Shown here: positions 12,401 through 13,472 of the stretch, one piece after another
How positions within the stretch are numbered: the first letter of the stretch is position 1
Layout of the letters: each line of letters opens with the position of its first letter
Source: Capsaspora owczarzaki ATCC 30864
Lineage: Eukaryota; Opisthokonta; Filasterea
DNA length: 64,000 nucleotides
Assembly: GCF_000151315.2 (NCBI RefSeq)
Contig: NW_011887292.1
Span: 599,534 to 663,533, forward strand
Direction: 5' to 3'
Position numbers and translations under genes: made by a program
Notes under the pieces: generated by a model
Told to the model about the DNA's origin: nothing
Databases searched by the model: none
What the model saw: the letters and a program-made list of their open reading frames with translations, nothing else

Positions 12401-13472
12401 AAAACGCTCGTTCCAGTCAATCTCGGGACAACGCTCAATCCTCGTGAACACCAAAACCTGACCAGAGTGCAAGACGTCATGAATGGAGGCGCCGCTGCTG
12501 CTCCCTCTCTTCGAGACTTGCTTCAGCTGCAGTATCGCTTTGAGCAAACGGCCCAGAGTTCGACCAAGATGTAGGTGGTGCTGATTTGCTGTAGACGATG
12601 ATGTTTTTTTGCAGTTTGTGCATTGGTGGTTTGTTTTTCTGACTTTTGAATGCTCGTTTTTTGACTTGGGGCGGAGCAGCAAGTACCTTACTTCGCGCAT
12701 CCACGCGACACTGAAAGAAGACCCATCGTTGAAGATTCTCGTGTTTAGCCAGTGGACTTCCATGCTCGACCTCTTGGAGCCGGCGCTGCAGGAAGCGCAC
12801 ATTTTCTTCTCTCGCTTTGACGGATCCATGAGCATGCGCGAGAAGGATAACGTTATTCGTGAGTTTGGCCATCTCCGCTCCCAAACGCGAGTGATGCTTT
12901 GCTCTCTCAAGTGTACCTCCATGGGTCTGAATCTGACGATGGCATCGCGAGTGTTTATTGTTGGTACGTGGACCGCGTTGGTTTTTATTGCTTGTTAGTT
13001 GTTTTTGGCTGGAGGAGGGGGGAGGCCGGTCCTGGATTGTCTGGATGAACTGACCAATGTGTTTCTTGTCCATTTGAACATTGTTCGGGATGCTGTGGAT
13101 GAAATCGTGGTTTGCAGAGTAAGTTGATTTTCGGTTTTTGCTTGTTGTTCGTTTTCGTTGCGAATCAGGTCTTGGACGAAATTGGAAACAACTCACACTT
13201 GTGGCTTTTTGTTGCTGAACTTGTGCGGCAGTCCTTGGTGGAACCCGATGCAGGAAGAGCAGGCCATCGATCGCGTCCATCGAATTGGACAAATGCGCGA
13301 AGTGATTGTTGAGCGATTGGTCATTCCAGACACGGTCGAAGAGCGCGTCTTGCTCTTGCAACAAAACAAGCAAATGCTTGCGAATGCCGTTCTCGACGAA
13401 GCTGGTCGAGCGGCCTCGCAGCGCCTCGACCTGAATGACCTGATGTATTTGTTTGGGTTGCGGCGCGATTGA
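9047..13472 (+). CDS. SNF2-family ATPase with internal RING finger and SUMO-interacting motifs (Uls1/RAD5-RAD16-like)
   Basis: Exons: 9047-10133, 10208-10386, 10485-10568, 10661-10980, 11076-11140, 11230-11364, 11469-12570, 12680-12963, a single base at 13118, and 13232-13472; 1165 residues. The N-terminal 360 residues are disordered and carry three SUMO-interacting-type motifs: RPIDLT (about 114), DIVILDS (173) and NLVYDLT (287). The ATPase begins at IGTAWMIAREKKAPFGGLLA, with Walker A DEPGLGKT (about 444-451), VVLTTYALV, DEAT in place of DEAH (about 564), SGTPIQNS and CLRRLKSSMIDG. A C3HC4 RING (CPICMD to CPTCRQP, about 840-887) sits between the two lobes, as in RAD5, RAD16, HLTF and Uls1. 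The second lobe has ILVFSQWTSMLDLLE, TSMGLNL, DPWWNP and QAIDRVHRIGQ. SIMs plus RING suggest a SUMO-targeted ubiquitin ligase/translocase acting on chromatin; this is inference. A HIRAN domain (HLTF/RAD5) was not seen. Pro replaces Met in ADEMGLGKT. Confidence 0.88.
13118..13118 (+). other. Putative one-nucleotide microexon in the SNF2-RING gene
   Basis: The upstream exon ends in phase 1 after GTG TTT ATT GTT G (donor gtacgt at 12964). The downstream exon starts T CCT TGG TGG AAC (acceptor ending at 13231). Joining them directly breaks the frame and loses the invariant Asp of DPWWNP. Between them lies gtttgcag, then A, then gtaagt: a good acceptor and a consensus donor enclosing one base. Inserting that A gives GAT (Asp) and restores both motif and frame. 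The flanking introns would be 154 and 113 nt. I found no other AG-A-GT in the interval. Confidence 0.65.

What the first reader, a model, noticed from the sequence alone, without database searches (positions are those of the whole stretch)
12964..13231. One-nucleotide microexon encoding the middle base of an invariant Asp codon
Seen: exon ...GTT-G / gtacgt, then tttgcag-A-gtaagt, then cag / T-CCT-TGG-TGG. Only insertion of the single A gives GAT and restores DPWWNP, a near-invariant SNF2 helicase motif, and the reading frame. Skipping it shifts frame. Single-base exons are extremely rare (one plant example, in APC11, is known to me). Here the base sits between a good acceptor and a consensus donor, with introns of 154 and 113 nt on its sides. 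Splicing might also proceed by recursive or resplicing steps.
Basis: partly seen in the sequence, partly recalled or inferred. Interest (0 to 1): 0.85.

Follow-up and report, generated by a model that had tools for sequence, protein, structure and literature searches.

The report
Single-base exon in Capsaspora helicase gene
In a single-celled relative of animals, a helicase gene can encode its full conserved protein only if the cell splices in an exon one letter long, a kind of exon reported so far from a few plant and fungal nuclear genes; RNA evidence is still needed.

Summary
The window is Capsaspora owczarzaki. A SNF2+RING helicase gene (9047-13472, +) encodes its conserved core only if one base, A at 13118, is spliced in between introns of 154 and 113 nt. 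Of 658 in-frame GT-AG arrangements bridging the gap (no or one middle exon), exactly one gives VDPWWNP: the 1-nt exon. The Asp is present in 117 of 119 aligned homologues (the other 2 do not cover the site) with invariant spacing, and in 18 of 18 Capsaspora SNF2 paralogues whose motif I could read. NCBI's model CAOG_009287 equals mine to residue 1085, then runs into intron 8 and stops. With the exon, Pfam Helicase_C rises from 38.7 bits (cut short) to 73.0 (complete). The main rival, a weak donor 4 nt downstream giving V-GT-PWWNP, is in frame but fits worse. Against: the first acceptor lacks a near pyrimidine tract, and no transcript or orthologous genome was available. Single-base nuclear exons are known (APC11, VPS55, CYP621A), so this is a new member of a known kind, in a lineage where my searches found none.

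The parts
9047..13472 (+). SNF2+RING helicase gene, 1165 aa in the 1-nt-exon model (start codon as in the NCBI model; stop codon 13470-13472)
   Evidence: Exons 9047-10133, 10208-10386, 10485-10568, 10661-10980, 11076-11140, 11230-11364, 11469-12570, 12680-12963, 13118, 13232-13472 (end corrected, one stop only). First 1085 residues identical to P0002 = CAOG_009287.
12680..12963 (+). Exon 8, ends ...RVFIV + G of the Asp codon (intron phase 1)
12964..13117 (+). Intron 8, 154 nt, GTACGT...TTTGCAG
   Evidence: Donor matches GTRAGT at 5 of 6; branch-like CTGAC at 13050-13054 followed by 62 nt without AG up to the acceptor AG.
13118..13118 (+). Single-nucleotide exon A, middle base of GAT (Asp1086)
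   Evidence: Only solution of 658 that gives VDPWWNP; Asp in 117 of 117 homologues covering the site, 119 aligned.
13119..13231 (+). Intron 9, 113 nt, GTAAGT...GGCAG
   Evidence: Donor matches GTRAGT at 6 of 6; branch-like CTCAC at 13192, next AG is the acceptor.
13232..13472 (+). Exon 10: T of the Asp codon, PWWNP, motif VI (QAIDRVHRIGQ), C terminus and stop
   Evidence: Open frame; completes Pfam Helicase_C 9-110 of 110; missing from the NCBI protein.
12968..12973 (+). Rival donor GTGGAC (in frame with 13232, gives V-GT-PWWNP)
   Evidence: Matches GTRAGT at 3 of 6, U1 pairing -1.5 kcal/mol.

Best explanation
Base 13118 is a genuine single-nucleotide exon of a nuclear, spliceosomal gene. The two short introns around it are removed one after the other, because U1 and the acceptor machinery cannot both sit on one base. 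If intron 8 goes first, the junction ...GTTG-A|GTAAGT remakes a donor that then splices to 13232; the reverse order is also possible. The mRNA carries GAT (Asp1086) and an intact DPWWNP...QAIDRVHRIGQ helicase core. Skipping the base or retaining either intron truncates the protein before motif VI. Shown here: the sequence, the frames, the uniqueness of the solution, conservation of the Asp, the truncated public model. Inferred: splicing in vivo, order of steps, loss of helicase function on failure.
For: One of 658 in-frame solutions gives VDPWWNP. Asp in 117 of 117 covering homologues with unvarying spacing, 119 aligned; in 18 of 18 Capsaspora SNF2 paralogues read; in 3 of 3 solved-structure alignments printed. 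Pfam Helicase_C 38.7 bits, positions 10-93, for the NCBI protein, 73.0 bits, 9-110, with the exon, 67.2 with the GT rival. Donor matches to GTRAGT 5 and 6 of 6 versus 3 for the rival donor; 11 reference introns have 4-6. Lengths 154 and 113 versus 74-153 in the references; one intron would be 264 or 268. Of 27 genome-wide YYNCAGNGTAAGT sites, 3 have a branch-like motif with an AG-free run, this one among them. The NCBI model breaks off exactly here, the usual fate of 1-nt exons in annotation (PMC8831610, passages).
Against: No transcript, no second assembly and no orthologous genome was available. The acceptor at 13117 has no close pyrimidine tract and ranked at the 1st percentile, the 13231 acceptor at the 14th, of a rough, poorly trained model. 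The branch-like site of intron 8 lies 65 nt from the acceptor, against 16-45 nt for the nearest such motif in the gene's seven other introns. The AG-free run is not rare: 3 of 79 CTRAC sites, 6.7% of sampled positions. U1 pairing of donor 12964 (-4.4 kcal/mol) is slightly weaker than all 11 references (-4.6 to -10.2), and intron 8 is 1 nt longer than the longest reference. In rough splice-site score alone the 1-nt model is not the best of the 658 (23.6 versus 26.6 at the top).
Confidence: 0.9

Rival explanations
1. One ordinary intron, 12968-13231 (264 nt), using donor GTGGAC four bases downstream. The protein reads RVFIV-G-T-PWWNP, Asp replaced by Gly-Thr.
For: In frame, no stop, needs no tiny exon. 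Helicase_C still scores 67.2 bits over its full length.
Against: Donor matches GTRAGT at 3 of 6 and pairs with U1 at -1.5 kcal/mol, with a better donor (5 of 6, -4.4) four bases upstream. Intron longer than all 11 references. Asp lost and one residue inserted where 117 of 117 homologues have Asp and the same spacing.
Confidence: 0.04
2. Assembly or sequencing error: the true genome has one more base beside a single 268-nt intron, and the AG-A-GTAAGT inside it is chance.
For: A single missing base would also explain the frame. I could examine one assembly only; the NCBI protein comes from a contig of the same length (3,794,338 bases), so it is not independent.
Against: A 268-nt intron exceeds all 11 references (74-153 nt), and a perfect-donor AG-A-GTRAGT at a fitting place occurs in 1 of 5000 shuffles and 5 of 1891 real windows.
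Confidence: 0.03
3. The NCBI model is right: intron 8 is not spliced, the protein ends ...FIVGTWTALVFIAC, and exon 10 is a relic or belongs to a minor form.
For: It is the deposited model. Intron retention is common in Capsaspora: 2986 of 25,677 introns at 20% or more in at least one stage (PMC3870316, passages).
Against: Exon 10 is an intact frame that carries motif VI as in 117-118 of 119 homologues and completes Helicase_C. Annotations are reported to lack 1-nt exons (PMC8831610, passages).
Confidence: 0.02
4. A larger or differently placed cassette exon (e.g. 13015-13118 or 13015-13060) bridges the gap.
For: Some such exons score as well as or better than the 1-nt exon on rough splice-site score (top 26.6 versus 23.6).
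Against: None of the other 657 in-frame solutions keeps VDPWWNP.
Confidence: 0.01

Closest known systems
Fusarium CYP621A one-nucleotide exon (PMC12940212, 2026; abstract, introduction, results, discussion read)
   Same: One base is the middle base of a codon in a near-invariant motif (Gly of PKG there, Asp of DPWWNP here), found because flanking exons are out of phase by one base.
   Different: There the base is G, it is conserved across 20 orthologues and backed by 18 SRA reads; here the base is A, one species, no reads. Other gene family, other kingdom.
Plant APC11 single-nucleotide exon (PMC4674806; abstract and discussion read)
   Same: Nuclear 1-nt exon between canonical introns; stepwise removal proposed by its authors.
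   Different: Tested by GFP fusion and RT-PCR in plants; other gene and lineage.
Plant VPS55 1-nt microexon (PMC8831610; passages read)
   Same: 1-nt exon with a GTRAGT donor, absent from annotations.
   Different: Backed by RNA-seq and RT-PCR and conserved across land plants, with isoforms that lose it by intron retention.
Placozoan mitochondrial cox1 single-base exon (PMC5436844; passages read)
   Same: One base needed for a conserved residue (His).
   Different: Mitochondrial, self-splicing group I introns, not the spliceosome.
Recursive splice sites / ratchet points of Drosophila (PMC8605326; listing and start of abstract only)
   Same: Abutting acceptor and donor, so that a donor is remade after the first step.
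   Different: There no base stays in the mRNA and the introns are long; here one coding base stays and the introns are short.

Membership tests
Nuclear single-nucleotide exon | Exactly one base between an AG acceptor and a GT donor | tested here: met
   TTTGCAG-A-GTAAGT at 13111-13124
Nuclear single-nucleotide exon | Base needed for frame and for a conserved residue | tested here: met
   Sole solution of 658 giving VDPWWNP; Asp in 117 of 117 covering homologues, 119 aligned
Nuclear single-nucleotide exon | Both flanking introns have usable splice signals and fitting length | tested here: met
   Donors 5 and 6 of 6, lengths 154 and 113; branch-like motifs. Acceptor 13117 weak by a rough model
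Nuclear single-nucleotide exon | Present in transcripts | not testable with these tools
   No RNA reads at hand
Nuclear single-nucleotide exon | Conserved in orthologous genes | not testable with these tools
   No eukaryotic genome of a relative in the collections
Recursive splice site (zero-length exon, AG|GT) | Acceptor directly followed by donor, no base retained | tested here: not met
   One base lies between AG and GT; if none were retained the frame would break. It may still work stepwise like one
SNF2 helicase with RING, CHR28-like by best hits | SNF2 domain, RING finger, complete Helicase_C | tested here: met
   SNF2-rel_dom 213.7 bits and RING models on P0002; Helicase_C 9-110 with the exon. 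Subfamily rests on best-hit names; no tree was made

The most novel reading that the evidence does not exclude
An independently evolved nuclear single-base exon in a close unicellular relative of animals that also acts as a switch: skipping it or retaining either intron yields a helicase cut before motif VI, so stage-regulated intron retention in Capsaspora could turn the motor off while keeping the SNF2 lobe and the RING finger.
Probability: 0.15. Interest if true: 0.75.

Novelty: new member of a known kind. Interest (0 to 1): 0.58.

Why it matters
If confirmed, it is a nuclear single-base exon outside plants and fungi, close to animals, in an organism with published staged RNA-seq, so it is directly testable. 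It would show that one-base exons arise repeatedly, give a short-intron substrate for asking how the spliceosome handles an exon too small to be recognised across, and correct a gene model that now lacks its last helicase motif. It also suggests a way to find more: look where annotated proteins break off inside a conserved domain.

Tried and rejected
Splice-site models trained on predicted introns were unreliable. One search gave sensible donors but recovered 2 of the 7 known introns, one with a shifted acceptor; drifted to noise. I use one search's scores only as a rough ranking and rely instead on 11 reference introns: 7 shared with the NCBI model and 4 in paralogues placed by the protein motif.

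More 1-nt exons in this genome: all 27 YYNCAGNGTAAGT sites were examined, 26 fetched plus ours. The automatic coding test failed on our own site too, so it says nothing. A branch-motif filter leaves 3 of 27: ours, L018 and L035; I did not establish either of the other two. By eye many of the rest look like ordinary exon ends; I did not count them. Only the GTAAGT donor class was searched.

Origin by duplication of one intron: introns 8 and 9 are slightly alike (p 0.018 local, 0.01 global, 1000 shuffles), but of 78 intron pairs two have higher global z and one higher local z. Not supported.

Cassette exons: listed, none of the other 657 solutions keeps VDPWWNP. Programmed frameshifting and RNA editing were thought of, not tested.

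A separate 3' gene model: no Capsaspora name among the best 120 of 2227 hits to the C-terminal piece; models shorter than about 96 aa would be missed by that search.

Full report
What it is. The window lies on contig C1 of a 27.46-Mb genome in 29 contigs. With the spliced protein as query, the best hit of 2037 (120 listed) is CAOG_009287 of Capsaspora owczarzaki ATCC 30864, 100% identical over 90% of the searched part. The species is a filasterean, in Opisthokonta; that it is a close unicellular relative of animals is stated in PMC3870316. The gene has SNF2, RING and Helicase_C domains. Other top hits are largely plant proteins, many named CHR28, and Mortierella-type fungi.

The observation. 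Exon 8 ends GTTG at 12963, followed by GTACGT; 13118 is a lone A between TTTGCAG and GTAAGT; exon 10 starts T-CCT-TGG at 13232. With the A the coding sequence runs to one stop, 1165 aa. Skipping the A, or retaining either intron, leads to a stop. The NCBI protein (1096 aa) equals my model for residues 1-1085, then reads GTWTALVFIAC from intron 8 and stops. So the public model breaks exactly here and lacks DPWWNP and motif VI.

Is there another way? I listed every GT-AG arrangement with introns of at least 45 nt, no stop, and no or one middle exon that joins exon 8 to the right frame of exon 10: 658 solutions, 20 with one intron and 638 with a middle exon. One of the 658, the 1-nt exon, gives VDPWWNP. 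By rough splice-site score alone it is near the top (23.6) but not first (26.6). In 119 aligned homologues, 117 cover the site; all 117 have Asp there and the same spacing. In Capsaspora's own SNF2 paralogues the Asp is present in 18 of 18 loci where I could read the motif; three further fetched loci, L069, L074 and L075, gave no readable motif. RAD5, RAD54-like and DDM1 chains have it (3 of 3 alignments printed). Pfam Helicase_C scores 38.7 bits (positions 10-93) for the NCBI protein, 73.0 (9-110) with the 1-nt exon and 67.2 (9-110) with the in-frame GT rival, so the domain alone prefers, but does not prove, the Asp.

Splice signals. The reference is 11 introns: 7 of this gene, 4 of paralogues. 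The two donors match GTRAGT at 5 and 6 of 6 (references 4-6), the rival donor at 3. U1 pairing is -4.4 and -5.9 kcal/mol, the rival -1.5; references -4.6 to -10.2, so donor 12964 is a little weaker than all of them. Reference lengths are 74-153 nt; the model needs 154 and 113, a single intron 264 or 268. CTGAC at 13050 is followed by 62 nt without AG up to the acceptor AG, and after CTCAC at 13192 the next AG is the acceptor. Against: acceptor 13117 has no close pyrimidine tract (1st percentile in the rough model), its branch-like motif is 65 nt away (16-45 in the gene's other seven introns), and AG-free runs this long start at 6.7% of sampled positions and follow 3 of 79 CTRAC sites.

Chance. 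YYNCAGNGTAAGT: 27 in the genome, 62 for the reversed control; 7 of the 27 have A as the base. By arithmetic 264 x 27 / 54.9 million is 1.3e-4. The pattern was modelled on the site, so looser classes matter: perfect donor 1 of 5000 shuffles and 5 of 1891 windows; 5 of 6 matches 31 and 23; 4 of 6 145 and 74; any AG-A-GT 384 and 184. Of the 27 sites, 3 have a branch-like motif with an AG-free run.

How it works. Most likely the two short introns go one after the other. [quoted passage not shown] Here the remade donor TGA|GTAAGT pairs with U1 at -5.1 kcal/mol. Order and efficiency are unknown. Since each failure I translated truncates the helicase, and Capsaspora regulates intron retention by life stage (PMC3870316, passages), a regulatory role is possible but untested. 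How the exon arose is open; PMC12940212 (discussion) suggests loss of an exon-end base rescued by a cryptic exon, and PMC5436844 (passages) intron insertion, for their own cases. Duplication of one intron is not supported.

Novelty. Nuclear single-base exons that I found in print: plant APC11 and VPS55 (PMC4674806, PMC8831610) and Fusarium CYP621A (PMC12940212), the last also the middle base of a codon in a conserved motif. A mitochondrial one is known in placozoans (PMC5436844). Searches for single-base exons and for Capsaspora with microexon listed none in a Capsaspora or other holozoan nuclear gene, as far as titles, abstract starts and the passages I read show; one search listed 25 of 37 papers. 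The one paper, on Creolimax, scanned microexons of 3-15 nt (PMC4739763, passages). The library lacks most subscription papers and holds no preprints. So this is a new member of a known kind on a new branch of the tree, with high but not transcript-proven confidence.

Noticed in passing
window 12964-13472: The NCBI protein CAOG_009287 (P0002) lacks its last 80 residues, with PWWNP and helicase motif VI, and carries 11 residues read from intron 8 instead.
   Followed up: yes
L066, L067, L068, L070: Four SNF2 paralogues also have an intron within or just before this motif, each at a different place: G|TT GAT, Q|VVVLDPWW, DSDW|NP, DTDW|NP.
   Followed up: partly
window 13015-13118: The downstream part of intron 8 is open in one frame for about 35 codons (GGGRPVLDCLDELTNVFLVHLNIVRDAVDEIVVCR); no in-frame exon there keeps DPWWNP.
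   Followed up: partly
L018 (reverse strand, near 1524) and L035 (reverse strand, near 1485): Two other YYNCAGNGTAAGT sites with a branch-like motif and an AG-free run upstream; possible further tiny exons, not established.
   Followed up: no
window 13484-13525: TTTTG tandem repeat just after the stop codon of the helicase gene (by eye).
   Followed up: no
window 13705-16521: Next gene on the same strand looks like a tandem papain-type protease (CGSCW motifs; by eye, name recalled), with long T runs in its introns.
   Followed up: no
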